Shown here one piece after another: positions 4,963-28,079 of a DNA stretch of 64,000 nucleotides. Position numbers and translations under genes: made by a program. The stretch is from Patiria pectinifera (Eukaryota; Echinodermata; Asteroidea; Valvatida; Asterinidae), in the NCBI GenBank assembly GCA_029964075.1, contig CM057135.1, forward strand, positions 15,092,863 to 15,156,862. The letters run 5' to 3'. The notes under the pieces were generated by a model. The model was not told where the DNA came from. It made no database searches and saw only the letters and a program-made list of their open reading frames with translations. How positions within the stretch are numbered: position 1 is the first letter of the stretch; each line of letters starts with the position of its first letter.

Positions 4963-5178
4963 ATGGAGACCAACTCAAGGCCATCAGCTAAAGGCTATTC
5001 GCGGTGGGTTAAAGCTGCATTGAAGAGTTACGTTGATCAAAATAATATAGAGATCGATGAACGAGAAAATTATACTCGTCGAGACTATATTCAAGCCATA
5101 AGGGCTGAAGAGAGTAAATTTAAAAACTTGAGGAAAAAGACACTACATGAGCTCAAACAGATTGTAAAAAGACTTTGA
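4963..5178 (+). CDS. Small charged protein at the left edge of the outer virus-like element
   Basis: This is an intact 71-codon ORF with an ATG, rich in Lys, Arg and Glu, and predicted to be mostly helical. I do not recognise its family. It lies 350 bp upstream of the TFIIB-like relic on the same strand, and an AATAAA-like signal follows at about 5231, so it is plausibly a real gene of the outer element. The palindrome GAGATAATATCTC precedes the start. A nucleic-acid-binding role would fit the charge but is only a guess. Confidence 0.45.
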   Translation: METNSRPSAKGYSRWVKAALKSYVDQNNIEIDERENYTRRDYIQAIRAEESKFKNLRKKTLHELKQIVKRL

Positions 5179-5531
5179 TATTGTTGTTTTAAAGTTTATC
5201 ATTGTTTGTAAATCTTAGTAAAATTTGTATAAATAAATGGTTGTAAATATAATTTGTTTCTTCAAGGTTTTTTTGGTTTGTGTCAGAGTATTTTTTATTC
5301 CATAGAGGGCGCCATTTATGGGTGTGAGGGATATCAATTATAAACAGAGGGCGGTTTTTAATTTTTATGGTAAGGAGTTAATGTACCGATAAAAACAAAG
5401 GGCGCTATTTATAGGCGCTAAGGGATCTGATATCAATAAAGATAGGTGCTGTTCAATAAAAAAAAAACAGAGGGCGATATTTCAATCTTTATTTAAACAT
5501 GCAATCATTTTTATTTAAGTTTATTAAATAG

Positions 5532-5985
5532 ATGGAATACTTTGCGACGCCGCAACTTGGGGATAAGTGCGATCATCATATAATCATCGAGAATGGTTTT
5601 TTAATTTGTGAAACGTGCGGCGAAATAGTTTCACGTTACTTTGATTTTTCGGTGGAAAATGCGCAAGAAGATCGTATCAATTGGTCAATTTTCAAAAGAA
5701 ATAAAAGAAAAACTGTGGAGAAACTTATTTTTTCTGTGTGTCCATAGCAAGACTCAGACGATGTCCAAGAAATAATAAATATAACAAGCTCGTTAATTAC
5801 AAAACATTGAGGGGAAACAGATGTGTTAAACGGTCGTTAATAGCATCGTGTTACCATCACGTCGTTGGATTAGACAAAGAACGAGTTAGAAATTAATTTA
5901 AGTGACTCAAAATCAATTTAATAAAGCACTAAAAAGATACGATGACCACTACAATAAAAGTGGGGCCGAGGGTGACGCCCTAAGA
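5532..5985 (+). pseudogene. TFIIB-like transcription factor, broken
   Basis: The first 71 codons contain a zinc-ribbon pattern: Cys-x2-His at residues 13-16 (CDHH) and then CETCG about ten residues later. This matches the N-terminal ribbon of TFIIB-family initiation factors. Past the stop at 5745-5747, other frames continue with peptides resembling the first cyclin fold, including LRGNRCVKRSLIASCYHH near 5805-5860 and NQFNKALKRYDDHYN near 5915-5955. The gene is thus split by several frameshifts and truncated. TFIIB-like proteins are known from large DNA viruses, where they help direct viral transcription. Its place in the compact outer element supports a viral factor rather than a host gene fragment. 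The zinc ribbon is clear; the cyclin part is inferred from fragments. Confidence 0.55.
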
Positions 5986-6031
5986 GTTGAAATAGAGGTA
6001 TAACTCGGCGGATCGCTTTCATAATGTTTAT

Positions 6032-6682
6032 TTACCGAGAATCCGAACTTGTAAGTTTTTCGATGAGAGATTTTTTTTCTTTTGCCAGCCGTTCGTCTAC
6101 CCGTTTTTTAACTTCTTTTTCAAAGTCTGTATCATTTTTAATTTTTTGAAGCTTTGTGCTGGTCTTTGTTCTAATTTTTTGCTCAAGCTCGTTAAATTTT
6201 GCGAGCTCTCTCGTAATCAATCTAAACTCTTCGTGCGATATATCTCCGTCGTTGATGGCTTGAGACACGTATTCTTCAATCGTGTTAAGTTTGGAGTCTG
6301 CTTATATTTTAATCTGGTCGTGCTTTTTCAGCTCGGTGGATAATCGCCTAGACGCGATTCTAAGCAGAATATCTACACCAAAAGCGCCTATAAACGTTCC
6401 TTCTAGCACCAATCCAGCGAAGGCTGATATAACACCCAAGAGAGCGGGAATACTGACAGCCCCCGCTATAGCTCCCAATCCTTCTAATCCTATCTCTACG
6501 TAAATAATAGTGTCGATAACTCTCTTTATTTTTTTATAAGTGCGCTCTCGGTGGTCTCTCTCTTTCAAGATTAAAGATCGAATCTCTTCAATCTTTTTAA
6601 GTCTCTATACTTTTGTTTCTTCATTACTATTTAATCGGAGTACATCTCCAGAAATATCGGGGTATAATACATTATTACTCAT
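6032..6682 (-). pseudogene. Membrane protein with C-terminal helical region, two in-frame stops
   Basis: From an ATG at 6682 one reading frame runs to 6032 and is interrupted only by in-frame stops at about 6609 (TAG) and 6300 (TAA). Removing neither, one still sees a single gene of about 216 codons: a charged N-terminal helix, a glycine/alanine-rich hydrophobic stretch of about 45 residues around IGLEGLGAIAGAVSIPALLG, and a charged helical C-terminus starting SQAINDGDISHEEF. I recall relatives as uncharacterised proteins in cnidarian and other marine genomes. It probably sits in a membrane; function is unknown. Confidence 0.6.
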
Positions 6683-6707
6683 GTTTTAATATAACAAGAT
6701 TTTAAAA

Positions 6708-7675
6708 TTAAAAGATTTCCAACTCTATCATTATACTAACACCCTTGTTGTTGATGATCTGTCCTTTTTCACCTATGATTGAAAATGTCAGTTTGTCGAT
6801 TATACCGTTTTTAAGTTTTTTGAAATCCTCGACTCTATCAGGCTCGAAAAACTTCTCTGTTTAAACGCAATTTGAGTTTCACGTCGGTTACCGACAACGT
6901 CACCTTTTTAGATTCTATATTCGAAAACTTACCCCGGGTATAGAATTAAAAATGAAATTGAACCAATCGACGTCATACCACCCCGGTGGTATGGTGACCG
7001 AACCGGCGACTTCGGCACTAAATGACTCGGATAAATAAAATCTAAATCATCACCCGACTCGATAAGACTTCCCCGTATTGTCACACCAGCCTCTCTAATT
7101 GTTCTCATCCTAGGTTTGCTTATTATACCTTCGATATATTCTATCTTTTTACCTTCAAAGACTTGATGGTATCTTTCATATAAATTTCTTAATAAAAATA
7201 TAAGCGTATTGCGTTCTACACTGTGTAAGGCTTCTCGTTTTTTGTTGTACACAACTTCATGTGCGTCACTTATTTGATTTGTTTTTTTCCTGGATCGATT
7301 CTAAAGCAGAGTCTAGTCTATCTTCTTCGTACGCTTCTATAAGGTCGTTTATAACTCTATTGAAATAATTTTCGTCGTTAATTAAAAAGTCGTAGGGGTA
7401 CTCGGGTACCAATTGCGCGATAAAATCTCTATCCGTTCTTATTACCATATCTGGGTCGAGTTCACTGAGTCTTATAGAGTCATCACGTCTTTTAGCTGGT
7501 TGTCCGTCTATTTGCATATACCAATCAATCTCCGTGGCGCTGGAAATATTAAAATAAAATATCCGGGGTAAAACAACACCATTTTTATGCGTACAGATTT
7601 TTGACCGTTTAGATTATCTACGACGTCTTCTAATTTAAACGTCTGCTCATTTTGAAACAAGGGAAACGAATGCAT
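6708..7675 (-). pseudogene. Uncharacterised protein of the outer element, several frameshifts
   Basis: Coding peptides follow one another on the minus strand: an ATG at 7675 (MHSFPLFQNEQTF), then from 7540 a second frame (EIDWYMQIDGQPAKRRDD), then after an A-run near 7280 a third frame (HEVVYNKKREALHSVERN), and then pieces ending at a stop at 6708-6710 (KGVSIMIELEIF). The order and spacing indicate one former gene of about 320 codons with at least four frame changes. No catalytic motif is recognised. It is divergent from the gene starting at 7717, leaving only 41 bp for a shared promoter. Confidence 0.55.
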
Positions 7676-7716
7676 TTATTTTAAAGTCTTTGTATATTAA
7701 AACTGAAACTAAAATA
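7676..7716. promoter_or_regulatory. Divergent intergenic promoter region of the outer element
   Basis: Two divergent start codons, at 7675 on the minus strand and 7717 on the plus strand, are separated by 41 AT-rich bases containing TATATTAAAA. So short a gap implies a compact bidirectional promoter of viral style. No known factor site is recognised. Confidence 0.35.
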
Positions 7717-8896
7717 ATGAGTGATTTTGAGTCGTTAAAAAAAGCAGATACAATCGATAGCTGATCAGGTAACGAGACAAGTAAATCAAAATGTAGCTAT
7801 AACGACAAGCTACTACCCCAGCGCATGTACTAGACAGTCCGTATCTCACGGGCGAACTCGAGATTACGGTCAACGCATCTAACACGTTTTTAACCTCGTT
7901 CCCCGACTCAATCTCAGACTATAAAATATTTCGCCTCAATACCAACGATGCTTTACTTCGTTGGAAAATAGACCCCATGTCTTTTTATCAGAATCAGTTA
8001 AACTTTGCAATCTATTGCGCTACAACGGGCTGTACTTCACGGTTAGAAAGATATTAAACGACATGGCCATAGCAATACCGGGGGGAAGACTCGTTTGACG
8101 AAAGATCAAAAGACTTATGGCTTAGGTCGGCTTTTTCTTTGGAACGAAAAAACAAAATCGTTTGTACTCTTAATAAAAACACGGCCACACTCGATTTTTA
8201 TCAACCCCGCGGGTGATAAAAATTGGGGTTTAGACGATCCAAAAAAACACGATGCTTATTTTAAGCATTGGAAGGGCTATGTCGAACAAGACGACATCGT
8301 CAAAATGGCTTGGTTAGATTTTATACCCGCCAAGAGTTCGTTTACCTCCGTGAGAATCATAAAGATCAACGAATCGATCAGATCTTACGTGTACGCTTTA
8401 CTCGGTGCGCAGGCTCAAACAAAAACGAGCGTATTAACACCGGGCACTGGATGAGACGCTCAGAGACAATTTAACGTCATCGTTGAAGATATCATCAATG
8501 CAGTAGACGACAAGGAAACGAGTATCAATCAATTTCAAGACTCTTTGCAGTATGCCAGAACGCCTTTAAATTTTGTCGTGAAACCGGGCTTGTATTTAAT
8601 TCCATCGGATATGAACTTGAGGTTTGGAACGCACGACGGCTATAATAACAATCTTCACATAGCTACCCAAAGTATGAAAACTGGTTTGGTGCCAGATTTA
8701 AACTCACAACCTCAACCGGACGACTCTTTTGATGACACCGATGACGTCGCGCCACCAACACCTGCCATTAACACCTACAGCTTTAACCCCAGAACCCACG
8801 AAACTTCAAACTCACCAAGACAAAAAATTATCGTTGACGGTCGGAATGTTGGCTATCGTTGATATGGAAATTTTAGCTTACGAGGCAACGCGATAA
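7717..8896 (+). pseudogene. Probable structural protein of the outer element, broken
   Basis: An ATG at 7717 opens MSDFESLKKADTIDS and then hits TGA. Other frames continue with VLDSPYLTGELEITVNAS near 7830-7870 and RLNTNDALLRWKIDPMSF near 7940-7990. A long C-terminal section from about 8215 to 8862 is interrupted only by TGA at 8452-8454 and includes SIRSYVYALLGAQAQTKTS and LQYARTPLNFVVKPGLYLIP. A last frame change gives an end near 8896. I recall this protein family as abundant and uncharacterised in corals, brachiopods and hemichordates. It is the largest protein after the coiled-coil one and a capsid or other structural role is plausible, but that is inference only. Confidence 0.5.
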
Positions 8897-8914
8897 GTCA
8901 CACTCTAATCATAC

Positions 8915-8959
8915 AAAAAATAAGCCTTACCAACCTTGTGCTGGTAAGGCTTATTTTTT
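8915..8959. terminator. Perfect 18-bp hairpin between convergent genes
   Basis: Bases 8915-8932 (AAAAAATAAGCCTTACCA) pair perfectly with 8942-8959 around a 9-nt loop. An A-run on one side and a T-run on the other make it symmetric for both strands. It lies between the convergent genes ending at about 8896 (+) and 8951 (-), and the minus-strand stop codon is inside the stem. Placement and symmetry suggest a bidirectional 3'-end or termination signal. Confidence 0.6.
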
Positions 8960-9766
8960 TTTTAACTTGATTACAACTATAACTACCATCGTTTTTGCAG
9001 GTACGCAAACACCAAGGCTCCCACACCCAAAAACCAAGAAAAACAAAGCCCACACGTGTTCGGTCAACCGCGATACAGACTTACTCAGCGCATAAAATAT
9101 CCAACTTAGTACGCTGCATATGATACCTGGAAGAGCACCCAACGTGGTCGCTCCGAGTTTTTGAAGAGCAGATGCAAAATTAGCGAGTTGTTTTGAAATC
9201 CACTCTTTGATACAACCTTTTGGTGGATTAGGTGTTGGTGTTGGTGTTGGCGATGGTGTGGTTGGGGCACCCGCACCTCTCACGGTAGCGACGATGCTAC
9301 TCACTATCGTGCTGATGGCTAAACTAAAAGCGGCTAAAATACTCACTATGGTCACACCTTGTTCTCTAAACAGAGTTCTAATCTTTTCCGCCAGAGTCGT
9401 GTCGCCGCTTAATATTTTATTAATCGTTTCTTTGATTCTAGCGATCTGACTTTTGATCCCTCGTTCGTTGGCTTTTGTGGCTTCTAATCTGGCGGATCTT
9501 TCAACGTTCAAGTCGCTCAATTTATCGTTCAACTCTCGTCGACCCTCTTCGCTGTGAGATTCGTCGAGTTCTTGTCTCTTGGCTGCAATCTCTCGGTCCA
9601 GTGCAGAGAGACGCGCTAAATTAAGTTCAAGGTTACCTCTCAACGTCTGAAGACTTTTGTCTAAAAAGTAATTCTGTAATTCAATCCTTCTGTTTGAGCG
9701 CCGGTGTCGCATTGTAAATCGTCTATAATCTCGGTTACTTCGGAATGAGAAACAGCCCAATGCCAT
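8951..9766 (-). CDS. Coiled-coil and multi-membrane-span protein of the outer element
   Basis: This is the one long intact gene of the outer element: 271 codons from an ATG at 9766. Residues about 28-125 form a highly charged coiled coil. A conserved-looking segment TTLAEKIRTLFREQGVTIVS leads into a hydrophobic span at about 138-162. A Pro/Thr-rich spacer (TPSPTPTPTPNPP) follows, then an amphipathic segment and two further hydrophobic stretches at about 205-230 and 240-258. The C-terminus is basic. I recall relatives, always of unknown function, in many marine invertebrate genomes. The architecture fits a membrane-anchored virion or fusion/tail-like component, but nothing in the sequence proves that. 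It converges on the gene to its left, with a hairpin between them. Confidence 0.65.
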   Translation of the reverse strand: MALGCFSFRSNRDYRRFTMRHRRSNRRIELQNYFLDKSLQTLRGNLELNLARLSALDREIAAKRQELDESHSEEGRRELNDKLSDLNVERSARLEATKANERGIKSQIARIKETINKILSGDTTLAEKIRTLFREQGVTIVSILAAFSLAISTIVSSIVATVRGAGAPTTPSPTPTPTPNPPKGCIKEWISKQLANFASALQKLGATTLGALPGIICSVLSWIFYALSKSVSRLTEHVWALFFLVFGCGSLGVCVPAKTMVVIVVIKLKKK

Positions 9767-9989: not shown

Positions 9990-10197
9990 AAGGGATGATT
10001 ATGTATTTTTCCCCCTTAAATGTAATATTGAATATATTATATAAATTGTTATGTGTCAAAGTTTCGTGTTTCTTATTTGTATGTAAGCATTGTCTTTTAA
10101 CAATATTTGTAAATCATGTAAAACATTGTGCAATTCGGCCGCGAGGCTGCGATATGATGTTTTTAAATAAACCATTTAATAATAATAATAATAATCG
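9990..10197 (+). mobile_element. 3' end of a non-LTR retrotransposon with (AAT)n tail
   Basis: The sequence has the look of a LINE 3' untranslated region: GC-richer motif GCAATTCGGCCGCGAGGCTG, then AATAAACC, then a short ATAAT microsatellite tail at 10178-10197. The 5' boundary is uncertain and could lie anywhere from about 9790. It separates the intact coiled-coil gene from the remains of the gene hit by the Polinton. Confidence 0.55.
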
Positions 10198-10333
10198 GTG
10201 ACTCTGGGTAGTTCTGTCATGGGGATACTCTCAGGTTGTATCGATCGCAGTTGTTGATTTTGATCGTCACTGAGTGTCTTACGTTCGTAATGCGTAAAGC
10301 CTAAATCCTTTCTAATAAAATCTCTACCGTTTA
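10198..10333 (-). pseudogene. 3' part of the outer-element gene split by the Polinton
   Basis: The minus strand encodes an open stretch (INGRDFIRKDLGFTHYERK, then SDDQNQQLRSIQPESIP) that ends abruptly at the LINE tail. Its upstream side ends exactly at the Polinton target duplication. The other part lies at 25718-26057, in the same strand orientation and in a compatible frame across the duplicated TACCCA. See that entry for the remainder. Confidence 0.7.
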
Positions 10334-10399
10334 TACCCAAGTAGTAGGTGTGGCGTAAATCATGCCCCGTTTTGTGTGGTGGAGGTGGAGGGAATGAAT

Positions 10400-10632
10400 T
10401 GCGCATGCGTAGCATGCCTATGTATGAGGATGACGTCATAGGATGACGTCACAGGATGTGGGCGTGACTGGATGACGTCATAGGATGACGTCACGAGTTG
10501 ATACTGCGCATGCGCGTGGATTTTTTTTCTGTTTCTTTTTATTGTTTATGTTTTGGATGTGTATATGGCGCGCGTTAGCACTGCGCATGCGCGGACAAGT
10601 GCGGGCAAGTCTGGACAAGTCTGGACATGTCT
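10400..10632 (+). promoter_or_regulatory. Left promoter cluster: NRF-1, CRE and p53-family site matches
   Basis: Four perfect CRE/ATF sites TGACGTCA start at 10431, 10444, 10473 and 10486. NRF-1-type palindromes TGCGCATGCG occur at 10400, 10505 and 10582. Four head-to-tail decamers follow at 10593, 10603, 10613 and 10623 (GGACAAGTGC, GGGCAAGTCT, GGACAAGTCT, GGACATGTCT); the last three fit the p53-family half-site RRRCWWGYYY with no spacer. The cluster ends 226 bp before the WW-PC4 start codon. Binding is inferred from consensus only. Confidence 0.6.
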
Positions 10633-10857
10633 CAACGATGACATCATTGTTTTTAATAGCTAAAGCAGTGATTGGACGGATGGTTGTTTAGCAACCGCGC
10701 GCCTTATTTGATTGGTTGTAGGAGGGGTGGATCAAAACAAAACTACACCATTTCAAACCGTATTCATCATTTCGTCGTAAAGCGTTGAAGAGAGCACACC
10801 TTATTTTAGAAAGTCTACTGCTATTGCTAGTGTTTCCACTGTATTCGTGCTGCAATA

Positions 10858-11611
10858 ATGGTTGGTCACCCGGACTTGACGATGACGACAAATGTGGGGA
10901 GCACGATGTCTGGAGGTGGGGAGCACGCACCAGAGCCACCGACTCCGGAGGTGGTCGAGGAAGTCACTGTGGAAAGCAATGCCGGGAATGTTCTCTCCCC
11001 TGCCCTGATGGAAGCTGGTTGGAGAGTCGCTTACAGTGCGACCCACGGAAAGGTGTACTACTACAACTTTGTCACTCGTGAGCGTAAGTGGGACGCCCCC
11101 GGGTGTAGCGGATCTCAATGACGGAGCTGCCACACAGCCACAGCCCACCGGCTCTGCCGTAGTCCACCCTCAGCCCACCGGGCCTGCCGTAGTCCAGCCG
11201 CAGCCCATCAACGACATCTTAGCAGCAGCTGTGGCCCAGCTGAATGCCCCTGCCGCAGTACCACCGGTGCAGCAGCCTTCGCCTCCACTTACCGTTGCTT
11301 CTGGATCCAGTGACGCGGCTAGCACCAGTAGCAAGTCCACCAAAGCCAGTGTCAAGCGCAAGTTTGCCCCTGATCCCGACCAAGCTGAGAACGAGAGGAG
11401 TGCAGTCCGCTTCCAGATCGGAGGTGAGCGATACGCTGTCGTCAAGCGTTTTAAGGGTCGACCTTACGTGAACATACGCGAGTATTATACTAGCGGTAAC
11501 AGCGCAAAAATCCTTGCAGGCAAGAAGGGGATCAATCTCACTCCCGAACAATGGAGGAAACTGAGCATGCAGAGCAAGAAGATTTCCGAAGCCCTGAACA
11601 ATATGTACTGA
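10858..11611 (+). pseudogene. WW-PC4 fusion protein gene, left copy
   Basis: The ATG at 10858 opens a frame with a WW domain at about residues 58-82 (GWRVAYSATHGKVYYYNF, second Trp in KWDAP). A proline-rich spacer follows, and the C-terminus is a PC4-type single-stranded-DNA-binding coactivator domain (RFQIGGERYAVVKRFKGR, then YVNIREYY, then LTPEQWRKL). In this copy one extra C near 11092-11097 shifts the frame just after the WW domain, so the PC4 half is open but not in frame with the start. WW domains bind proline-rich ligands and PC4 binds DNA during transcription or replication; an early regulatory role is inferred. Confidence 0.75.
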
Positions 11612-11649
11612 TGACCTAACCCGATTTTCTTCGTTTGGTCACGTTGCAG

Positions 11650-12126
11650 ACGACGGCGATGATGACGACGGCAATTTGGAGCAAGATGCACGAAAGAGAC
11701 GGAGAAAGGTTCGATCATTGGTGGAGAGCATCTTGGCCAAACTGATCACGGACAATATCATCAGACTCGTTTACCAAAAAACTTGCACAGGAACCGTGCG
11801 AAGTTTGCGTCGAAGACTGGCCTAGTCAGTTTGACCATGCCTGTATGGCTTATGGAAAAGCTGTTGAGTCACACCTGTACGATTTTGTGGACGACTACTA
11901 CGAGGAGGCGGTATCGTGTGTGCAAGTCAGCCGAGTCGTTGACATCTACAACCAGATATCTGTTCAATTTGGTGCTGACTACACGTACGAGGGAGTGGAA
12001 GAAGAGATTGCCTCGATCGTCACTGAAACTCTGTACTCGTGGGAGACTGACTCCACAGACATTATTCAGTGGTACTACTGCGCGGATGGTTCTCGTGCGG
12101 TTGAACTCATGAACAGAATTATGTAA
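11650..12126 (+). pseudogene. Cys/DWPSQ-motif protein gene, left copy
   Basis: An acidic start (DDGDDDDG), a basic patch (ARKRRRK) and helices lead to the pattern Cys-x2-Cys-x2-DWPSQ-x2-His-x-Cys at about 11797-11846, which looks like a small metal-binding knot. I recall this C-x2-C...HPSQ...H-x-C pattern next to PC4 genes in marine invertebrate elements; the name and role are unknown. No in-frame ATG precedes it. A pyrimidine stretch and TTGCAG at 11644-11649 suggest a splice acceptor, so it may be a downstream exon of the same transcript. An extra A in the run at 11774-11781 shifts the frame in this copy. Confidence 0.5.
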
Positions 12127-13332
12127 TATGCACCGTGGACACTTATAATAAGCAATGGACTCTAGAAATAATTCATTCAGAGTATTAATAATTCATTCAG
12201 AGTCATGATTCGGTTGTAGGAAACTCAAAATAAAGAAGGAAAACTCCAAATTGCTGTCGTTCACCATTGCCGAACTGTTGAGTGTTTAAACGAATTGAAG
12301 TGTTATGAACTTTTAAGGATAATAGTCTAACAATTCAGAATCCATCTGTAAATATGTTCTGCCTGCAAAAGTGTTACCAGTGTTATGACCAAAACGAACG
12401 AATGATAATGTAAAAAGTTGTTATGACCTTGACTATACTTAACTACTTCATGTTTATTCACTGGACGATGTTATGTTCAGATGAGATGTTGTGTTAATAA
12501 ATAAGAAGTTGCGTTTGTTCCAGTTGAAATTCAACAAAAGTGTGTGTTTGTTTGCTTTGTTTTTCAATAGTTAAACCTCGCGTATATCGAACGCCGAGTC
12601 CAATCGATTAGGAGTCTCTAAAGTCGATGGAAATTATTGCAGTTTACCCTATACTAAGTAAAGGTAACAGTCAGACAAAAAAAAAAAAAAAAGACAACAA
12701 TTGATTTTTCTTTCGTTTCATCAACACTTGAACACGTGCTTTTATTTCTAATCAACAACATTAACATTCTGAGCATAATAATACATTTTAAATGAAGAAT
12801 AAACAACCACCAAAATAATGAGGGTCATCCCACGCGAGGCAATTTTCACAGGCAACTTATAGGCGACCAGTGGCAATGCAGAGAAAAAAGGGAACTTATT
12901 TATGACGCAAACAGCATTGTTCTGACCATATTTTTTTTCTGGCTCTAAGACAATAATGGTAAAATAAAAATTTGATTATTTGTGTGTGTGTGTTTTCTGT
13001 TTTCTGGAAACTGCCAGGAACTGGGTGCCTGTAAATTGCCGCGTGTGACATAACCCTACACGATAACGTATGTTACAATGAAGGCTTGGAACTCAATCAG
13101 TAACAATATTTACAAGTTCATCAACAGTAACCAACAAAGTTAACATTTTGAATAACACCTTAGGAATAAACTACTGTACAGTCCATGTCCATAAAGTACG
13201 TTTCGATGTAGAATTGAACCCAGAGGGTGCCCTCGTGACTGACATTGTTTCTAGACGTTCCTCGAGGCGTGTCTGTGATCGACTATTAAGAGGGCCATGC
13301 CCATTATTAAATACATGACGATAAACAGGCCC
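12127..13332. other. Non-coding inner part of the left inverted repeat
   Basis: The stretch is AT-rich and lacks a supported gene. It holds a direct repeat of AATTCATTCAGAGT at about 12170-12202, an A-run at 12678-12693, and a GT microsatellite at about 12980. The 164-bp segment 12337-12500 is absent from the right copy. Confidence 0.7.
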
Positions 13333-13376
13333 GTCAAAACAGTGTATACCTAATTAAGGTGGAGTTGCACAAAAGT

Positions 13377-13898
13377 CTATTGCATAAGAGCTCTAGAGAT
13401 CTGTCGGATGAGAAATGGTTCGTCATACACTTGGGTTTTGAATGCTGGAAAATGTTTGCGCACGAAATCATTGACAAGAATGTCATTGTCCGTGGTATCG
13501 GGAGAAAAGAGTCTCACAATGTTGCCCAAGTCCAGTCCTCTGCAACGGTGCAACAAGAAGAACACTGAATACTGTCCACACACTGCTGAAAGTGGTCCCT
13601 GTAAACGCTGGGTGTTGAATCGACATCGTCGGGTGTTCTTACGCAGAAAGGTTCGCAATTCAGGTAACTGAGGTGGGAGTCCATACGAATCGAAATACTC
13701 TCCCAATCCGTCTCTATCGATGTAGATGGCGATCCAGTGTTGGCCTGGCTTGGTGTGTGGGTCCGTATTCACCACCAAACCGCTCGGTCGGGGAATGTGC
13801 TGCTTTGTCGGGAGTTGATCGCGTGCAAACACACCCTTGAAATGATGCTTTGTGTAGCGATCCTTTTTCAAAATGGCAGCAATTTGCCCACTGTCCAT
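13377..13898 (-). CDS. PRO: Adenovirus-type maturation cysteine protease
   Basis: This 173-residue intact ORF starts at an ATG at 13898. It shows the adenain-like catalytic set: His54 in GQHWIAIYI, Asp70 in EYFDSYG, Gln100 and Cys107 in SAVCGQYSVFFL. In adenoviruses and Polintons this enzyme cleaves capsid and core precursors during particle maturation. It sits 14 bp downstream of the capsid gene on the same strand, the usual order in a virion-protein cluster. Length is close to that of family members and no lesion is seen. Confidence 0.9.
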   Translation of the reverse strand: MDSGQIAAILKKDRYTKHHFKGVFARDQLPTKQHIPRPSGLVVNTDPHTKPGQHWIAIYIDRDGLGEYFDSYGLPPQLPELRTFLRKNTRRCRFNTQRLQGPLSAVCGQYSVFFLLHRCRGLDLGNIVRLFSPDTTDNDILVNDFVRKHFPAFKTQVYDEPFLIRQISRALMQ

Positions 13899-13911
13899 GG
13901 TGAAATCCTAT

Positions 13912-15252: not shown

Positions 15253-15258
15253 AGCACA

Positions 15259-19505: not shown

Positions 19506-19542
19506 TCCCTAGCAACGATACCCTTTTTCGTGCTTGTCAAAT

Positions 19543-19899
19543 ATGGATGTTGGGAAAATTATAGACGGGATTAAGAAGCGTCGAGGGGACGTCCAGCCGC
19601 TAGTGGACTCCCTGAGAGCCGCCATAGTCATGAGTGCTCAAGGGGAGGTGTACCGTCGCTGGTACAACGAGTTGGTCATTAAGTTGTGGAGGAGGGGGCG
19701 CATCCATACCAAGAATTTCATAATATGGGAGAGTGCGACGCTGTCGGAGGAAGTTGTACGAGACGTCCGCCTCCAAGTCATGGAGAACATGACTAATACT
19801 GAAAGGTATGACTTCCTCCAGTCGACAGAGATTCACCCAATCCTGGATGCCCTGGAGATACCAGAGGATTGGAAGGAACAGATTCAGTTTCGCAACTGA
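19543..19899 (+). CDS. Unknown 118-residue protein
   Basis: An ATG at 19543 opens a well-behaved frame (MDVGKIIDGIKKRRGDVQPL to PEDWKEQIQFRN). It is predicted to be helical, is rich in charged residues and Trp, and has no signal or membrane segment. The arrangement, helices ending in a conserved-looking FLQSTEIHPILDALEIP, is reminiscent of a death-domain-size fold, but I see no diagnostic motif. It is read opposite to the virion cluster and ends in a hairpin. Confidence 0.5.
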   Translation: MDVGKIIDGIKKRRGDVQPLVDSLRAAIVMSAQGEVYRRWYNELVIKLWRRGRIHTKNFIIWESATLSEEVVRDVRLQVMENMTNTERYDFLQSTEIHPILDALEIPEDWKEQIQFRN

Positions 19900-19912
19900 A
19901 TCTGTTCTTTCC
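19871..19912 (+). terminator. Hairpin overlapping the stop codon of the 118-residue gene
   Basis: Bases 19876-19889 (GAACAGATTCAGTT) pair perfectly with 19894-19907 around the loop TCGC. The stem extends by five further pairs with one G-T wobble. The TGA stop lies inside the 3' arm. A 3'-end processing or termination role is inferred from position. Confidence 0.45.
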
Positions 19913-20089
19913 AAGAACAACCCAACCGGCCCTTTTTAGGGCCACACGATGTTAAAAAGAGATTAGAAATCCATGTCTGTGTGAGTGTTTTGTTTTGTAA
20001 GCTTTAATTCGCAATACCGACGAAAGCGCCCCGCGTGCGCGCGGTAGTGTCGCGCGTGCACGCGCGCGCGTGCTCACGCGGACACTTTC

Positions 20090-20130
20090 AGACAAGTCCA
20101 GACAAGACGTAGACAAGTCCAGACTTGTCT
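20090..20130 (+). promoter_or_regulatory. p53-family-type decamers upstream of the zinc-finger gene
   Basis: Decamers AGACAAGTCC (20090), AGACAAGACG (20100, imperfect), AGACAAGTCC (20111) and AGACTTGTCT (20121) are packed together. The last two form a spacer-free 20-bp match to the p53-family consensus RRRCWWGYYY twice. They lie 162 bp before the zinc-finger ATG and resemble the decamers in the inverted repeats, which suggests shared control of the two regulatory transcription units. Confidence 0.5.
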
Positions 20131-20291
20131 GTCTCACTCGCACAACGTTACAATCGATCATACAGCACGGTTGTTATTCAGTGTGCACTTGGCCACTGTT
20201 GCATTCGCATCGCATTCATTGCCGACGTTTATTACACGATAGAAAACAGTGAGTGGTGGGGATTTGACCCACGGCATCGGAGTTGGAGGAA

Positions 20292-22938
20292 ATGGATCGC
20301 GTCGAGCGGGAGTGGGTAAACTGGCCGTTTGAAGGAAGCCCGGATTTAACATCGTCCCAGCTCATCACGGTGCAAGACATCGCCGATGCATTGATCGAAG
20401 CAGTAAGTACCCTATGACGGTGCATTTTTTGTTCAGTGTGCATGCATCCTCCTTGTCATAGCCTAGTACAGTTAGGCCTAGACTTATAATTTTTAGGCCT
20501 ACCTATATTTAGCCTAGACCTAGGCCTACGACCTGCATAGGCCTATTTTTTCCTGAAACTGCATGTGAACGAACTATAACAAAAGGGTCCAGCATGTCCA
20601 GTAGACTGTGACTGTAGGCTAGCTCCCCAACACGCAGCTCCCCAACACGCAGCTCCCCAACACGCAGCTTCCCAACACGTAGCTCCCCAGTACACGAGAC
20701 GACAGGTACGACTTATAATTCATTATTTTGTGATCCCAGTTTTGTTTTGTTTTGTTTAGTTTTTTCGGGGACCCGCTAGTACAATCTTTCGCGTGCGCGC
20801 ATTTGTGAGTGCATGGTTCATATACGCCATAATTCGATACGTTACTGAGTCCGCCGCGATAGCTCCGCCGTTAGTGTGACCGATTGCTAAGCGGGAGATA
20901 CCGGGTTCGAATCCGAGCGCGTCCACTTTACCTCAATTTTTTTTTTTTTTTTTTTTTTTAATTTTAAGGGAAATAAGGACCGAAATCCGCGTAAGTAAAA
21001 TCTCACCGGCGTGACCTGGCCTGTGGTGACGACGTTCTCATCGGGCCAGTTGTGATAGGTCTACCCAAAGTGTAGTTTTTTCCCCCATGTGTTACAAAAT
21101 CACATTCATTGCCTTCTTTTCATATTCAGAACGAGGCTCATCTTCCCGGTCCCGCGAGGACGCTTTCTCCCCCGAGCGAAACTTTTCGATCATGTCTCCG
21201 GGAAATGCAGAACGAAAATGAGGTAAGGGTGGTATTTAATTAAGGCCAAAAAGTTTTTAAATGTGTATGATGAACATTTTTCTGTACCGCCAATACATAT
21301 TTTTACAACTAGAGTGTTGTGTAATGTGACTGTTATTTTGTTTGTTTTTCCAATCATTCAGGAGTCTCCCATACTGATCCCGGATACGGAGGACCAAAGC
21401 ATTAAAGAGTTACTCATACACGGAACACCACCCCTACATTCATTGGATATTCGTGGTGATATTCGTATAATCTCACCGGCGTGACCTGGCCTGTGGTGAC
21501 GACGTTCTCATCGGGCCAGTTGTGATAGGTCTACCCAAAGTGTAGTTTTTTCCCCCATGTGTTACAAAATCACATTCATTGCCTTCTTTTCATATTCAGA
21601 ACGAGGCTCATCTTCCCGGTCCCGCGAGGACGCTTTCTCCCCCGAGCGAAACTTTTCGATCATGTCTCCGGGAAATGCAGAACGAAAATGAGGTAAGGGT
21701 GGTATTTAATTAAGGCCAAAAAGTTTTTAAATGTGTATGATGAACATTTTTCTGTACCGCCAATACATATTTTTACAACTAGAGTGTTGTGTAATGTGAC
21801 TGTTATTTTGTTTGTTTTTCCAATCATTCAGGAGTCTCCCATACTGATCCCGGATACGGAGGACCAAAGCATTAAAGAGTTACTCATACACGGAACACCA
21901 CCCCTACATTCATTGGATATTCGTGGAGGTGGAGCCATTTCTCCTCCGATGGACATGGACACATCAGAGCTCCCCCTTGACGATGATGACGATGATGACG
22001 ATGACGATGATAGTTCCATTATATCCCCTTCTCCAACGGGTACAGATGGGGACATCAAATACATCCGCGGTCCCACACAGAAGGAGAATCCTGTATCGCC
22101 AGAAGACATGGACAGCTCGACCCCGGTTAGTATGTAAAGTCTGTATATTCAATTCGATGACTGATAATGTATTTGAATATTTATGTAACATACTTTTTTG
22201 CATCAGTACAACATTGTATTGATTGATTGAGATATTTTTTTTTGATTATTATTTTTTTTAACCCATGCTCAGAATTCTAATGCACAACTGGGACACCGCA
22301 CCGACAACGCAAACGGTGAAACCACAGATCTCACCTGCTCGGTCTGTAATCAGAAGTTTACCCGCCGGGACAACCTGAAGCGACACAAGAAAAAACACAG
22401 CAAGACCGCCTTTCCCTGTCCTGCCTGTGAGAAGTCTTTCACGAGGCCCGATGCTTTGAAGAGGCACCGAAAGACTCATGCAAAACGACATACAGCGAGT
22501 CACCGGCAAGACACTGATGGCATCCATCAGGACGGTAATGAACACACGGGTTTGGGGCCTTCGGCCCCCAAAAAGAAGTGTACTAGGGACACTAAACAAA
22601 AGACCAAGAAAGATGTAAATGCCAGTACATCAAAAGTCCCAGATATGAGCAAAAATAAACCAGCCCCTTCCCCCAAGAAACAGAGCATTAAATGTTCGAC
22701 ATGCGGCAAGGGTTTCGGCCGACGTGACGCCATGCTGCGACACGTGAGAAAATACTGCCGGTCTGCCTCCACCACCCAAGAACGCGACCCGTCGCCAGAA
22801 AACCATCAACAGCAGCCTGAACATGACGAGCCCCTACTAGAAGATTCACCAATCTTGGGCCTGTTTATCGTCATGTATTTAATAATTGGCATGGCCCTCT
22901 TAATAGTCGATCACAGACACGCCTCGAGGAACGTCTAG
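20292..22938 (+). CDS. Spliced C2H2 zinc-finger gene, truncated into the inverted repeat
   Basis: Four exons, all phase 0, have good GT-AG sites: 20292-20402 (MDRVEREWVNWPF), 21600-21692 or its duplicate 21130-21222, 21832-22125 (with a run of 11 Asp) and 22273-22938. The last exon has three fingers: CSVCNQKFTRRDNLKRHKKKH, FPCPACEKSFTRPDALKRH and a C2HC-like CSTCGKGFGRRDAMLRH. Related Polinton polymerases, as I recall, carry such fingers in front of the polymerase domain, so this is probably the N-terminal region of a lost PolB gene or a separate DNA-binding regulator. From 22857 on, the coding sequence is inverted-repeat DNA and encodes an accidental hydrophobic tail (IVMYLIIGMALLIV). Confidence 0.65.
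20622..20690. repeat. 15-bp tandem repeat in intron 1
   Basis: About four and a half copies of AGCTCCCCAACACGC stand head to tail. The preceding 160 bases are rich in TAGGCC palindromes. Both lie in the first intron of the zinc-finger gene and have no apparent function. Confidence 0.75.
20852..20935 (+). other. tRNA-like sequence in intron 1 of the zinc-finger gene
   Basis: A perfect B-box (GGTTCGAATCC) and an anticodon-like loop TTGCTAA (anticodon GCT, Ser-type) are present, followed after about 12 bases by a long T-run that would stop RNA polymerase III. The acceptor and D stems do not pair convincingly, so it is a decayed tRNA or SINE head rather than a functional tRNA. Confidence 0.35.
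20999..21926. repeat. Exact 458-bp tandem duplication inside the zinc-finger gene
   Basis: Bases 20999-21456 recur at 21469-21926 with no difference that I can see, at a spacing of 470 bp. The unit contains exon 2 whole and the first 95 bases of exon 3 with its acceptor. The 12-bp filler repeats GATATTCGT from the unit end, which suggests a slippage or microhomology event. Identity shows that it is recent. Confidence 0.9.
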
Positions 22939-23921
22939 AAACAATGTCAGTCACGAGGGCACTCTCTGGGTTCAATTCTACATCGAAACGTACTTTATGG
23001 ACATGGACTGTACAGTAGTTTATTCCTAAGGTGTTATTTAAAATGTTAACTTTGTTGGTTACTGTTGATGAACTTGTAAATATTGTTACTGATTGAGTTC
23101 CAAGCCTTCATTGTAACATACGTTATCGTCATGTAGGGCTATGTCACACGCGGCAATTTACAGGCACCCAGTTCCTGGCAGTTTCCCAGAAAACAGAAAA
23201 CACACACACACAAATAATCAAATTTTTATTTTACCATTATTGTCTTAGAGCCAGAAAAAAAAATATGGTCAGAACAATGCTGTTTGCGTCATAAATAAGT
23301 TCCCTTTTTTCTCTGCATTGCCACTGGTCGCCTATAAGTTGCCTGTGAAAATTGCCTCGCGTGGGATGACCCTCATTATTTTGGTGGTTGTTTATTCTTC
23401 ATTTAAAATGTATTATTATGCTCAGAATGTTAATGTTGTTGATTAGAAATAAAAGCACGTGTTCAAGTGTTGATGAAACGAAAGAAAAATCAATTGTTGT
23501 CTTTTTTTTTTTTTTTGTCTGACTGTTACCTTTACTTAGTATAGGGTAAACTGCAATAATTTCCATCGACTTTAGAGACTCCTAATCGATTGGACTCGGC
23601 GTTCGATATACGCGAGGTTTAACTATTGAAAAACAAAGCAAACAAACACACACTTTTGTTAAATTTCAACTGGAACAAACGCAACTTCTTATGAATTGTT
23701 AGACTATTATCCTTAAAAGTTCATAACACTTCAATTCGTTTAAACACTCAACAGTTCGGCAATGGTGAACGACAGCAATTTGGAGTTTTCCTTCTTTTTT
23801 TGAGTTTCCTACAACCGAATCATGACTCTGAATGAATTATTAATACTCTGAATGAATTATTAATACTCTGAATGAATTATTTCTAGAGTCCATTGCTTAT
23901 TATAAGTGTCCACGGTGCATA

Positions 23922-24397
23922 TTACATAATTCTGTTCATGAGTTCAACCGCACGAGAACCATCCGCGCAGTAGTACCACTGAATAATGTCTGTGGAGTCA
24001 GTCTCCCACGAGTACAGAGTTTCAGTGACGATCGAGGCAATCTCTTCTTCCACTCCCTCGTACGTGTAGTCGGCACCAAATTGAACAGATATCTGGTTGT
24101 AGATGTCAACGACTCGGCTGACTTGCACACACGATACCGCCTCCTCGTAGTAGTCGTCCACAAAGTCGTACAGGTGTGACTCAACAGCTTTTCCATAAGC
24201 CATACAGGCAAGGTCAAACTGACTAGGCCAGTCTTCGACGCAACCTTCGCACGGTTCCTGTGCAAGTTTTTGGTAAACGAGTCTGATGATATTGTCCGTG
24301 ATCAGTTTGGCCAAGATGCTCTCCACCAATGACCGAACATTTCTCCGTCTCTTTCGTGCATCTTGCTCCAAATTGCCGTCGTCATCATCGCCGTCGT
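23922..24397 (-). CDS. Cys/DWPSQ-motif protein gene, right copy
   Basis: This copy keeps the reading frame that the left copy loses. It runs open from the acceptor-like site at 24397 to the stop at 23922, about 158 codons. The motif reads CEGCVEDWPSQFDLACM, so the His present in the left copy is Leu here, which would weaken any metal site. Translation start is unresolved, because the first in-frame ATG lies within the motif; splicing from the PC4 exon is the likeliest solution. Confidence 0.5.
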
Positions 24398-24435
24398 CTG
24401 CAACGTGACCAAACGAAGAAAATCGGGTTAGGTCA

Positions 24436-25183
24436 TCAGTACATATTGTTCAGGGCTTCGGAAATCTTCTTGCTCTGCATGCTCAGTTTCCTCCATTGTT
24501 CGGGATTGAGATTGATCCCCTTCTTGCCTGCAAGGATTTTTGCGCTGTTACCGCTAGTATAATACTCGCGTATGTTCACGTAAGGTCGACCCTTAAAACG
24601 CTTGACGACAGCGTATCGCTCACCTCCGATCTGGAAGCGGACTGCACTCCTCTCGTTCTTAGCTTGGTCGGGATCAGGGGCAAACTTGCGCTTGACACCG
24701 GCTTTGGTGGACTTGCTACTGGTGCTAGCCGCGTCACTGGATCCAGAAGCAACGGTAAGGCGAAGGCTGCTGCACCGGTGGTACTGCGGCAGGGGCATTC
24801 AGCTGGGCCACAGCTGCTGCTAAGATGTCGTTGATGGGCTGCGGCTGGACTACGGCAGGCCCGGTGGGCTGAGGGTGGACTACGGCAGAGCCGGTGGGCT
24901 GTGGCTGTGTGGCAGCTCCGTCATTGAGATCCGCTACACCCGGGGCGTCCCACTTACTCTCACGAGTGACAAAGTTGTAGTAGTACACCTTTCCGTGGGT
25001 CGCACTGTAAGCGACTCTCCAACCAGCTTCCATCAGGGCAGGGGAGAGAACATTCCCGGCATTGCTTTTCACAGTGACTTCCTCGACCACCTCCGGAGTC
25101 GGTGGCTCTGGTGCGTGCTCCCCACCTCCAGACATCGTGCTCCCCACATTTGTCGTGATCGTCAAGTCCGGGTGACCAACCAT
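24436..25183 (-). pseudogene. WW-PC4 fusion protein gene, right copy
   Basis: Same gene as at 10858 on the opposite end. Here the ATG (25183), the WW domain and the proline-rich spacer are in one frame, but a 5-bp deletion near 24757 relative to the left copy shifts the frame before the PC4 domain. The PC4 domain is itself intact down to the stop at 24436. The two end copies therefore carry different lesions. Confidence 0.75.
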
Positions 25184-25408
25184 TATTGCAGCACGAATAC
25201 AGTGGAAACACTAGCAATAGCAGTAGACTTTCTAAAATAAGGTGTGCTCTCTTCAACGCTTTACGACGAAATGATGAATACGGTTTGAAATGGTGTAGTT
25301 TTGTTTTGATCCACCCCTCCTACAACCAATCAAATAAGGCGCGCAGTTGCTAAACAACCATCCGTCCAATCACTGCTTTAGCTATTAAAAACAATGATGT
25401 CATCGTTG

Positions 25409-25627
25409 AGACATGTCCAGACTTGTCCAGACTTGCCCGGACTTGCCCGCACTTGTCCGCGCATGCGCAGTGCTAACGCGCGCCATATACACATCCAAAA
25501 CATAAACAATAAAAAGAAACAGAAAAAAAATCCACGCGCATGCGCAGTATCAACTCGTGACGTCATCCTATGACGTCATCCAGTCACGCCCACATCCTGT
25601 GACGTCATCCTATGACGTCATCCTCAT
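25409..25627 (-). promoter_or_regulatory. Right copy of the promoter cluster
   Basis: This mirrors the left cluster. Decamers start at 25409, 25419, 25429, 25439 and 25449, one more than on the left, and CRE sites start at 25558, 25571, 25600 and 25613. It would drive the right WW-PC4 copy on the minus strand. The changed decamer number shows that the array expands or contracts between the two ends. Confidence 0.6.
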
Positions 25628-25717
25628 ACATAGGCATGCTACGCATGCGCAATTCACTCCCTCCACTTCCACCACACAAAACGGGGCATGATTTACGCCA
25701 CACCTACTACTTACCCA

Positions 25718-26057
25718 TCTTTCTTACATTTAACGCTATAGTCCTCAGAGTCAAGAGAATCTGTCTGGTTTCCTTTGATCCGTTAACCTTAGTAAGCCTT
25801 TACCAGTGTCATAAAATAAACCTCCTGTTTTGAGAATAAATTGTTGGTATCTCGGAGATATTGGTTTACTGTATATGTTATAAGTATCGTAAAACTCATC
25901 AACGCGACCATTAGTGACCATGCTTCTTCCTTGATCTAAAACGTCATCTATGTCGGTAGTGAGGATTGGTGGTGCAGGAGTATCAAAGTTGTCGTCCAGA
26001 TTGGTCTCTGCCATCGTAACCATCAACGGGATCCAAGTCAAATCTTCCCTCAGCCAT
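25718..26057 (-). pseudogene. 5' part of the outer-element gene split by the Polinton
   Basis: An ATG at 26057 opens MAEGRFDLDPVDGYDG. After a frame change near 26010 the coding sequence continues as ETNLDDNFDTPAPPILTT and YNIYSKPISPRYQQFILKTG, then changes frame again near 25790 and runs into the Polinton target duplication. The matching 3' part is at 10198-10333. The protein is unrecognised, soluble-looking and acidic at its N-terminus. The Polinton insertion is therefore inside a viral coding sequence. Confidence 0.65.
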
Positions 26058-26079: not shown

Positions 26080-26338
26080 TTATGTCGTTTTCATTATACT
26101 GCCCGGTAGTCTACCCTGGGTTACCAACCAATTTTGCGTGGCCAGAGCTCCACTTATAATACCCGTCAATTTAACCGCATCTTCTACGCTTAGTTTGTCT
26201 AAGTCCGGCGCTTTCATTTTGAGTAGTTCATTTCCTACCATGGTGGTGCAGGAGTATCAAAGTTGTCGTCAAAAGACCCGATATGACGGCACCGTGATAA
26301 ATCGTATTTGCTTTTCCGTTGGTGTCAAAGTTACTCAT
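26080..26338 (-). pseudogene. Small hydrophobic protein of the outer element, frame-broken
   Basis: The ATG at 26338 opens MSNFDTNGKANTIYHGAVIS in one frame. A second frame, from about 26242, gives MVGNELLKMKAPDLDKLSVE and ends at 26080. The switch coincides with a 30-bp block (26241-26270) identical to 25967-25996 in the neighbouring gene. The protein was probably a single-span membrane protein of about 85 residues. Confidence 0.5.
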
Positions 26339-26371: not shown

Positions 26372-26731
26372 TTATTCCATGTCAAGCGTTTTGGGGGCGC
26401 TGAGTGTAGTGGGTTGCGTTACTACCGGCACTGGCTGTACTACCGGCGCAGTTGCCTTACTGTTTAATACCAGCAAACCCACTCCTATCATCGACGCTAC
26501 AGCACCCCACATGGCCCAAGAGTTGTAGTCTGGTGAGCTCGTAGCTTCGTCCGATGTTACGTTCATTTTTGTTAATTTTAATTTCATCTGTCTATTGTGC
26601 TCGGCTACAGCTTTACCCTGCTGAATTTGTTTAGGATTTTTAGTCTTGGTCACTCTTTTTATCGGTTGGGGTGTCTCTGTCTCTGCTGGTTGAGCCGCAA
26701 GCGTTGCTGTCGCTGCTTTCTGATCTTCCAT
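26372..26731 (-). CDS. Single-span membrane protein of the outer element
   Basis: This is an intact 119-codon ORF from an ATG at 26731. The N-terminal half is charged and Gln/Lys-rich (NPKQIQQGKAVAEHNRQMKL). One hydrophobic span occurs at about residues 71-93 (WAMWGAVASMIGVGLLVL), and a Pro/Val/Thr-rich tail follows. It would be a type II-like or tail-anchored membrane protein. Family of unknown function; neighbours are other small membrane proteins and the packaging ATPase, so a virion membrane component is plausible. Confidence 0.6.
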   Translation of the reverse strand: MEDQKAATATLAAQPAETETPQPIKRVTKTKNPKQIQQGKAVAEHNRQMKLKLTKMNVTSDEATSSPDYNSWAMWGAVASMIGVGLLVLNSKATAPVVQPVPVVTQPTTLSAPKTLDME

Positions 26732-26785
26732 TTATTATATTAGGTTTATTAAATTTCAAATGTTTTGTTGTGATAATCGTAGAAA

Positions 26786-26902
26786 CTAGGGGGATATTAA
26801 AGTTCCGTACTTGTAACAAACGTCGCTCAACATACCAGCCATACTCGCGCTTTTAATAGGAGCAGAACTCAAGTCGTTGGTGAGTTCTTCTTCAGAATCC
26901 AT
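26786..26902 (-). CDS. 38-residue acidic small protein
   Basis: ATG at 26902, stop at 26786. The product begins MDSEEELTNDLSSAPIKSAS and ends YKYGTLISP. It fits neatly between two larger genes on the same strand, with gaps of 15 and 54 bases, which supports it despite its size. Function unknown. Confidence 0.4.
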   Translation of the reverse strand: MDSEEELTNDLSSAPIKSASMAGMLSDVCYKYGTLISP

Positions 26903-26917
26903 AGTGACGTTATATCC

Positions 26918-27193
26918 TCAAACTTGTACGGGTGTAACAACGGATAACACTCGCGAAAATAGACTTAAAGTGTATGTGCCAACAGTTTGAACAATTTCAT
27001 TTCCAAATTTAGTTTCGTACAGATGATACAGCTTTTCGAGTTCTTTACTGTCAAGAGCGTCGATATGTTTAACGGTGTATTCCTTTCCCAAGTACTTTCT
27101 AGAGTTTCCGGCTGCTACGACACCGCACAAACGATCTTTATGTTCTGCGTTGTGATCTTGTTCGTTCGTTAAAGTAAGTTTTAGGTCCTCCAT
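26918..27193 (-). CDS. 91-residue helical protein of the outer element
   Basis: This intact ORF from an ATG at 27193 contains VVAAGNSRKYLGKEYTVKHI, then an ALDSKELEKLYHLYETKFG helix, and ends in a mildly hydrophobic helix (TYTLSLFSRVLSVVTPV). I recall relatives with the same YLGK...LYxxYE pattern in Hydra, sponge and coral gene sets, linked to virus-like clusters. Function is unknown. It is the best-conserved-looking small gene of the right half and shows no lesion. Confidence 0.6.
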   Translation of the reverse strand: MEDLKLTLTNEQDHNAEHKDRLCGVVAAGNSRKYLGKEYTVKHIDALDSKELEKLYHLYETKFGNEIVQTVGTYTLSLFSRVLSVVTPVQV

Positions 27194-27209
27194 TTAATTA
27201 GAAACGAAT

Positions 27210-27326
27210 TTAATTTTGTTGTAGCTTTTGCAACTTTGTTACAAGGTATTCGTAGGTGTAAAACGATAGATTAAACGATATGATGATAATAGCCAAAAAC
27301 TGCAAATACTTGAATATTGCTATCAT
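27210..27326 (-). CDS. 38-residue single-span membrane peptide
   Basis: ATG at 27326, stop at 27210. Residues 4-28 (IFKYLQFLAIIIISFNLSFY) form one membrane span, followed by a basic tail. It lies 16 bases upstream of the 91-residue gene on the same strand. Small size lowers confidence, but the spacing is operon-like. Confidence 0.4.
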   Translation of the reverse strand: MIAIFKYLQFLAIIIISFNLSFYTYEYLVTKLQKLQQN

Positions 27327-27371
27327 TTACTAACAGCAAAATGTATTTTGTTGACGTTTGTTGAATAGGTT

Positions 27372-27494
27372 GCTACTCACTTAACTATTAATTGCTACTC
27401 AACTAGCTATTAATTGTTACTAAACTAGCTATTAATTGTTATTCACCTAGCTATTAATTGTTACTCACCTAGCTATTAATTGTTACTCACCTAG
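27372..27494. repeat. 22-bp tandem repeat downstream of the packaging ATPase
   Basis: About five and a half copies of a unit containing CTAGCTATTAATTGTTACTC lie directly after the ATPase stop codon. The block separates the ATPase from the small-protein genes. Confidence 0.8.
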
Positions 27495-28079
27495 CTACTC
27501 AAGTAGCTCGTAACTAACTGGAGGTTCTGTGTATACGACCAATTTACTATATTTCACATCTCTCAAACGTCGTTTTATATAATCTCGTTCTTCAATCGGT
27601 ACGACGTCATTTTCGTCTAACGCTTGATCAAACGATGTTTTATCCTTGCAGTAAAATAAAGCCAACCAAGCCGTGTTTTCTCTATAATCTTTTAAAACGC
27701 TGTTGTACTTTTGAGTTAATAACCAAAAGCTATGTTTTACGTGTCTTCCACTAAACGCCATTTTGCTTAGCGCGCACGTCTTTTTACGATATTTAATCTC
27801 TTGATCCGAAGAGCAATCGTCCACGATAAACAACGTAGCAACATCTTCGAATATTTTGCTGTAAAAATCGATCGCTTCGTTGAGCGTCATCTTGTACAAT
27901 TCCGGATCGCAGAGATGTACATCGGATCTGCTTGAATCAACTTTCTTTCGATGTACGTTTTGTTTGTTAAATATGGTAGGGCAAATGATGACTATCGCTT
28001 CAAATGTGTTTTTATAGTCTGACTCTAACAGATCCAAAATCCATTTGGTTTTACCCGAATGGCCTGAGCAGCCGTTTAT
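27495..28079 (-). pseudogene. Packaging ATPase of the outer element, 5'-truncated
   Basis: The open frame begins at 28079, directly after a TGA, with no ATG. Its first residues hold a Walker A motif (GCSGHSGKTKW). Walker B is VATLFIVDDCSSD, and a polar segment FWLLTQKYNS follows as in A32/FtsK-like viral packaging ATPases. Only the extreme N-terminus seems lost at the right boundary of the element. It differs strongly from the Polinton ATPase at 18548, so the two elements belong to different lineages. The body has no internal stop. Confidence 0.8.

What the first reader, a model, noticed from the sequence alone, without database searches (positions are those of the whole stretch)
4963..28079. 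Unnamed compact virus-like element with TFIIB-like factor and packaging ATPase
Excluding the Polinton and LINE, about 7.5 kb contains at least 12 closely spaced genes in divergent and convergent clusters: zinc-ribbon TFIIB-like factor, A32-type ATPase, coiled-coil membrane protein, several single-span proteins and a probable structural protein. No polymerase B, integrase or adenain-like protease is visible. The protein families seem common in marine animals but lack an assigned virus group as far as I know.
Basis: partly seen in the sequence, partly recalled or inferred. Interest (0 to 1): 0.9.

Follow-up and report, generated by a model that had tools for sequence, protein, structure and literature searches.

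The report
Broken copy of an integrating virus
The "compact element" is a worn, cut-short copy of a DNA virus of about 15-17 kb that sits in hundreds of places in its host's genome and joins a Polinton-type copying and inserting kit to a shell and packaging kit like those of poxviruses and giant viruses.

The parts
4909..5166 (+). copy of the PolB N-terminus (residues 2-80) at the far end of the element, reading inward; taken as part of a terminal inverted repeat
   Evidence: tblastn 52% identity, E 3e-18; the outer end of this repeat was not located
5562..6000 (+). zinc-ribbon ('TFIIB-like') gene, broken over 3 frames; full form 157 aa
   Evidence: tblastn 82-91%; no profile support for TFIIB
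6035..6685 (-). p218, membrane protein, with an inner stop
   Evidence: tblastn 90%; hydrophobic spans in the intact form; split ORFs
6711..7675 (-). p393 remnant, broken over 3 frames; possible minor capsid protein (guess)
   Evidence: tblastn; no family or PDB match
7717..8893 (+). p471 remnant, broken over 3 frames; intact form has a Pro-rich tail and a C-terminal membrane span
8904..8970 (.). hairpin between the convergent p471 and p417 genes
   Evidence: inverted repeat, arms 29 nt, 83%
8986..9741 (-). p417, C-terminal part (coiled coil and membrane spans)
   Evidence: tblastn 84-100%; 928 relatives
10194..10339 (-). p417, middle part, left of the Polinton
   Evidence: tblastn 88%
10340..25711 (.). 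Polinton inserted in p417; not part of the element
   Evidence: inverted repeats; protease, chromodomain integrase, IVa2-type ATPase; AGTAGTAGG ends and TACCCA at 10334-10339 and 25712-25717
25757..26057 (-). p417, N-terminal part
   Evidence: tblastn 72-93%
26086..26338 (-). p80, frame changed at an inserted 30-bp repeat (26241-26270)
   Evidence: tblastn 90-95%; repeat
26375..26731 (-). p127, single-span protein, open
   Evidence: tblastn 83%
26649..27193 (-). p192, two frames
   Evidence: tblastn 92-94%
27184..27326 (-). p50, small single-span protein, two frames
   Evidence: tblastn 89-95%
27370..27497 (.). 22-bp tandem array between ATPase and p50, also present in other copies
   Evidence: repeats of 22 nt at the same place in L014-L016
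27498..28061 (-). A32-type packaging ATPase, lacking its first 13 residues; the element is cut here
   Evidence: tblastn 90% over residues 14-201

Best explanation
The window holds a truncated, decayed copy of a 15-17 kb endogenous double-jelly-roll DNA virus with a Polinton-type life cycle. Shown by computation: gene order, with the ATPase taken as +: PolB>, <integrase, p140>, MCP>, ATPase>, p50>, p192>, p127>, p80>, p417>, <p471, p393>, p218>, <zinc-ribbon (put together from stretches of different copies); AGTAG-ended inverted repeats; 5-bp duplications; hundreds of copies; mostly silent differences between copies. Inferred: PolB primes the linear DNA at the inverted repeats; the rve integrase inserts it with a 5-bp stagger; MCP and perhaps p393 form a shell around a membrane bearing p417, p471, p218, p140, p127 and p50; the ATPase packs the DNA; the zinc-ribbon protein helps read AT-rich T(A/T)TATTAAA boxes beside start codons. 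New copies arise from rounds of replication and re-entry, and inserted copies then decay.
Against: MCP model confidence is low (mean pLDDT 41) and covers mainly the first jelly roll; two of the 37 rows have rmsd above 16. MCP is broken or partial in 5 of 7 non-window copies brought in by the ATPase. p417 (0.69, 4 copies) and p218 (0.57, 2 copies) show little constraint in small samples, p417 probably with alignment artefacts. Ends were not found in 2 of 8 copies. No IMG/VR relative in six scans. No virion, transcript or free DNA form was looked for.
Confidence: 0.85

Rival explanations
1. It is simply a subgroup of Polintons/Mavericks or adintoviruses, differing by sequence drift.
For: PolB plus rve integrase, AGT-type ends, similar length; integrase 23% identical to the window Polinton's, E 1e-13.
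Confidence: 0.3
2. A self-synthesising transposon whose virion genes are relics and do not matter for its spread.
For: High copy number; MCP broken in several copies.
Against: ATPase under constraint in loci not chosen by it (pN/pS 0.10); MCP open in 97 of 99 best copies; MCP breaks lie at different residues in different copies.
Confidence: 0.1
3. A fragment of a large NCLDV- or poxvirus-like endogenous virus.
For: A32-type ATPase and NCLDV/poxvirus-like MCP fold.
Against: Bounded units of 14.9-17.0 kb with inverted repeats and target duplications.
Confidence: 0.03
4. The first reader's compact, polymerase-free 7.5-kb element.
For: No MCP, integrase or further PolB sequence of the element in the window; the integrase query matches only the Polinton's own integrase.
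Against: The window copy stops inside the ATPase gene, and in other copies the missing half follows directly.
Confidence: 0.02

Closest known systems
Meld23486, a 'meldvirus' (Buck et al. 2024 preprint, PMC11071296; abstract, section 16, figure legends and passages seen)
   Same: Adintovirus-like PolB and rve integrase joined to poxvirus-like virion genes; its hexon model resembles D13.
Polintons / Mavericks (PMC11071308, PMC8097293; passages)
   Same: PolB, rve integrase, packaging ATPase, DJR MCP, AGT-type inverted repeats, purifying selection.
   Different: 5-bp not 6-bp duplications; A32-type ATPase; no recognised protease.
Adintoviruses (as described in PMC11071296, section 16)
   Same: PolB plus rve integrase.
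   Different: No chromodomain and no recognised adenain.
Cnidarian MCPs outside the Maverick-Polinton cluster (Bellas et al. 2023, PMC10120064; passages)
   Same: Shows that animal MCPs outside the main Polinton cluster had been noticed.
   Different: No sequences were compared; relation untested.
Poxviruses and other Nucleocytoviricota
   Same: A32-type ATPase; MCP model resembles D13, p72 and PBCV-1 capsid chains.
   Different: 15-17 kb, integrating; no RNA polymerase subunit seen among the ORFs listed.

Membership tests
[quoted passage not shown]
   PolB motifs Exo I, Exo II, A, C in a 1344-aa protein; the motif B pattern used did not match; no Pfam PolB hit; protein priming itself untested
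Polinton / Maverick | rve integrase | tested here: met
   PF00665 E 1.1e-11
Polinton / Maverick | inverted terminal repeats with AGT-type ends | tested here: met
   AGTAG ends in 6 of 8 copies
Polinton / Maverick | 6-bp target-site duplication | tested here: not met
   5-bp duplications in 6 of 6 copies with ends, adjoining 6-mers unequal (script, one base off for c8)
Polinton / Maverick | Ulp1/adenain-type protease | tested here: inconclusive
   None in Pfam scan of 10 of 14 proteins; ATPase relatives scanned; p50, p80 and intact p218 not scanned in Pfam
Polinton / Maverick | double-jelly-roll MCP | tested here: met
[quoted passage not shown]
   p393 is a guess; no fold made
Adintovirus | integrase with C-terminal chromodomain | tested here: not met
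   no Chromo hit, while the window Polinton's integrase has one, E 3.5e-9
Adintovirus | OTU-like domain in PolB | tested here: inconclusive
   only Cys- and His-containing patterns of my own choosing found; no fold made
Adintovirus | hexon recognisable by BLASTp | not tested
   no reference hexon was compared
Meld23486-like meldvirus | PolB and rve integrase with a poxvirus-like virion module | tested here: met
   in kind only
Meld23486-like meldvirus | common descent with Meld23486 | not testable with these tools
Nucleocytoviricota / poxviruses | A32-type ATPase and DJR MCP | tested here: met
Nucleocytoviricota / poxviruses | large genome | tested here: not met
   bounded units of 14.9-17.0 kb

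The most novel reading that the evidence does not exclude
A separate family-rank lineage of integrating animal viruses, not a Polinton: a protease-less, membrane-rich virion built from poxvirus/giant-virus-type parts and driven by a Polinton-type replicon. Replicon (terminal repeats plus polymerase) and integrase-virion modules trade as whole blocks while co-resident in one host genome, so the making of chimeric viruses can be watched among recent copies.
Probability: 0.4. Interest if true: 0.8.

Novelty: new variant of a known kind. Interest (0 to 1): 0.62.

Why it matters
If right, a host genome carries some 430 insertions of a DNA virus (about 1% of the assembly, my estimate from 429 tag places and about 15.5 kb each) whose packaging and integrase genes are under purifying selection. 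The eight library searches showed only one comparable genome in print, in a preprint. It bears on two open points: whether the poxvirus/giant-virus shell-and-packaging module circulates in small integrating viruses, and how polymerase and replication origin stay matched when modules are exchanged; in the six copies with both ends, polymerase type and terminal repeats go together.

Tried and rejected
Six IMG/VR scans (ATPase piece, P0010, A1, MCP, PolB, A4) and one GTDB scan (A1): no confirmed relative. PHROGs: only phrog_2666 (terminase) for two ATPases, E 1.6e-8 and 1.2e-7, was clear. PDB sequence search: PolB N-terminus to emerin's LEM domain, E 0.018, not pursued; nothing for MCP or p393. 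PolB also has a weak EndoVII match, below the curated cut-off. p471 model useless (mean pLDDT 33). TFIIB: no profile support. Idea of a shared or programmed frameshift in MCP: rejected, breaks lie at different residues in different copies. Foldseek searches could not be run; the fold comparison rests on the VIA second look alone.

Bias noted: loci L025-L054 were ranked by MCP similarity, so MCP pN/pS 0.075 is biased low; ATPase, integrase, p140 and p50 on those loci are fairer. Some loci are stretches of one copy (L002/L009/L025, L003/L011, L004/L010, L005/L012); identical pairs were skipped, others not. The ATPase-chosen set has the same overlap, so its MCP value (0.31; 3 sequences) and integrase value (0.02; 2 sequences) are not used. 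Copies with out-of-frame indels were dropped before counting (integrase 5 of 29, ATPase 10 of 29, p140 2 of 30, p50 4 of 29). One search read one strand only, so its 17 of 30 is superseded (33 open of 40 full-length, 41 loci with a hit). PolB pN/pS was not obtained (1 full-length match).
Full report
What is in the window. Homology searches show pieces of 11 genes between 4909 and 28061: PolB N-terminus, zinc-ribbon protein, p218, p393, p471, p417, p80, p127, p192, p50 and an A32-type ATPase. Names such as p417 give the length in amino acids of an open form in other copies (p471 is 467 aa in one copy). Only p127 and the truncated ATPase read open. A 15.4-kb Polinton (10340-25711) lies inside p417: inverted repeats; protease, chromodomain integrase and IVa2-type ATPase; the 6-bp duplication TACCCA is read from the flanks printed.

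How far the family reaches. The 271-aa piece of p417 has 928 relatives at E <= 1e-3 among 3041 candidates; of the 120 listed, many are 420-450 aa long, nearly all from ENA, some in contigs of megabase size. The ATPase piece has 32 of 63 candidates, one intact piece of p471 6 of 67. No tool named the hosts; one p417 relative bears the name of a bacterial symbiont MAG of a marine animal, which I take as host contamination. That the host of the window is an animal is inferred, not shown. IMG/VR gave nothing in six scans.

The rest of the element. The window is G000:C7:15092863-15156862 of a 613,548,705-base assembly in 1020 contigs. The ATPase finds 718 first-look candidates there; 150 were scored and 149 of these have no inner stop. 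The MCP finds 990; 99 were scored and 97 have no inner stop. Both lists show only the best-scoring copies. A 31-bp tag occurs in 429 places with at most 2 mismatches, the reversed pattern in none. In L002 and L009, both from one copy, the sequence continues where the window copy breaks off: MCP (422 aa), p140, integrase (333 aa), PolB (1344 aa); L003 shows a broken MCP at the same place. None of these four is elsewhere in the window except the PolB N-terminal copy; the integrase query matches only the Polinton's own integrase, 23%.

Ends. For eight copies I fetched both ends. In six, the two ends carry an inverted repeat starting AGTAG, 93-99% identical over 161-366 bp, flanked by a 5-bp duplication: GTATT, TATAA, TTGCG, CATAC, ACATA, TAAAG. 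The 6-mers do not match (for c8 that script was one base off, one search shows it directly). In c1a and c1b no pair was found. The six lengths computed from these ends run from 14.9 to 17.0 kb. The repeats agree within a copy and fall into different types between copies.

Selection. In the 30 loci chosen by MCP similarity, pN/pS is 0.10 for the ATPase (19 copies compared), 0.15 for the integrase (24), 0.28 for p50 (25) and 0.30 for p140 (28). MCP gives 0.075 in 33 open loci, biased low. Smaller samples: zinc-ribbon 0.20 (4), p471 0.25 (3), p80 0.32 (10), p192 0.35 (12), p127 0.38 (11), p218 0.57 (2), p417 0.69 (4). Against the reading, of the 7 non-window copies brought in by the ATPase, MCP is whole in 2 and broken or partial in 5, at differing places. 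The simplest account is that changes build up mainly during functional rounds of replication and that copies decay one by one after insertion. Barreat and Katzourakis argued likewise for vertebrate Mavericks (PMC8097293, passages).

Module exchange. Copy c12 differs from c8, c1a and c20a by 11-21% across PolB (oriented bins 3101-7100), then by 1-6% (one bin 12%) from 7101 on, where integrase, p140 and MCP lie. The jump falls within about 100 nt of the PolB/integrase border (PolB ends at 7194). Copies c12 and c20b share a PolB type (99% over residues 3-610) while the others are 71-85% identical to it piece by piece. c12 and c20b also share one repeat type; c7 and c20a have a second, c8 and c22 a third. 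So replicon and virion modules have been recombined, and in the six copies with ends both repeats go with the polymerase type.

Promoter-like boxes. T(A/T)TATTAAA lies within 45 nt upstream of 5 of 14 gene starts; 2000 sets of random positions had a mean of 0.19 and a maximum of 2. With the zinc-ribbon gene this suggests, but does not show, a virus-specific transcription programme.

Comparison with the literature. Eight searches of the paper library listed no description that I recognised as this element; listings show titles and abstract starts only. The nearest is Meld23486 in Buck et al. 2024 (PMC11071296; abstract, section 16, figure legends and passages). Bellas et al. 2023 (PMC10120064, passages) note that cnidarian MCPs fall outside the main Maverick-Polinton cluster. 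Krupovic et al. 2024 (PMC11071308, abstract and passages) describe Polintons by pPolB, rve integrase, Ulp1-type protease, ATPase, MCP and mCP. The adintovirus paper of 2021 was not held. The element works like a Polinton but fails the 6-bp duplication, and a protease was not found; it also fails the adintovirus chromodomain feature.

Verdict. The element is an integrating double-jelly-roll virus with an unusual combination of modules and several hundred copies, many nearly identical. I rate it a new variant of a known kind, interest 0.62.

Noticed in passing
G000 contig C7 (window at 15.09 Mb): Copies crowd on this contig: of the first 100 of 429 tag places listed in contig order, 56 lie in the first 6 Mb of C7 and 44 on C1-C6 together; 38 of 150 ATPase rows are on C7, none between 23.8 and 43.4 Mb. 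A non-recombining or sex-linked block is possible.
   Followed up: no
window 44302-59685: Long arrays of a diverged 24-bp unit with strong GC skew.
   Followed up: no
L009 2127-2703: A 577-bp near-perfect palindrome directly beside the left terminal repeat of copy c12, with matching 162-bp arms on both sides of that copy; probably an older foldback element used as target.
   Followed up: partly
L011 1819-2413, L015 6965-7768: Tandem repeats of 72 and 83 bp near the ends of two copies, at or just beyond the conserved body.
   Followed up: no
window 25967-25996 and 26241-26270: An exact 30-bp repeat, the second copy sitting inside the p80 remnant.
   Followed up: no
window 1172-1678 and 30285-30644: Tandem arrays of 163 bp (3.1 copies) and 123 bp (2.9 copies) on either side of the element.
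   Followed up: no
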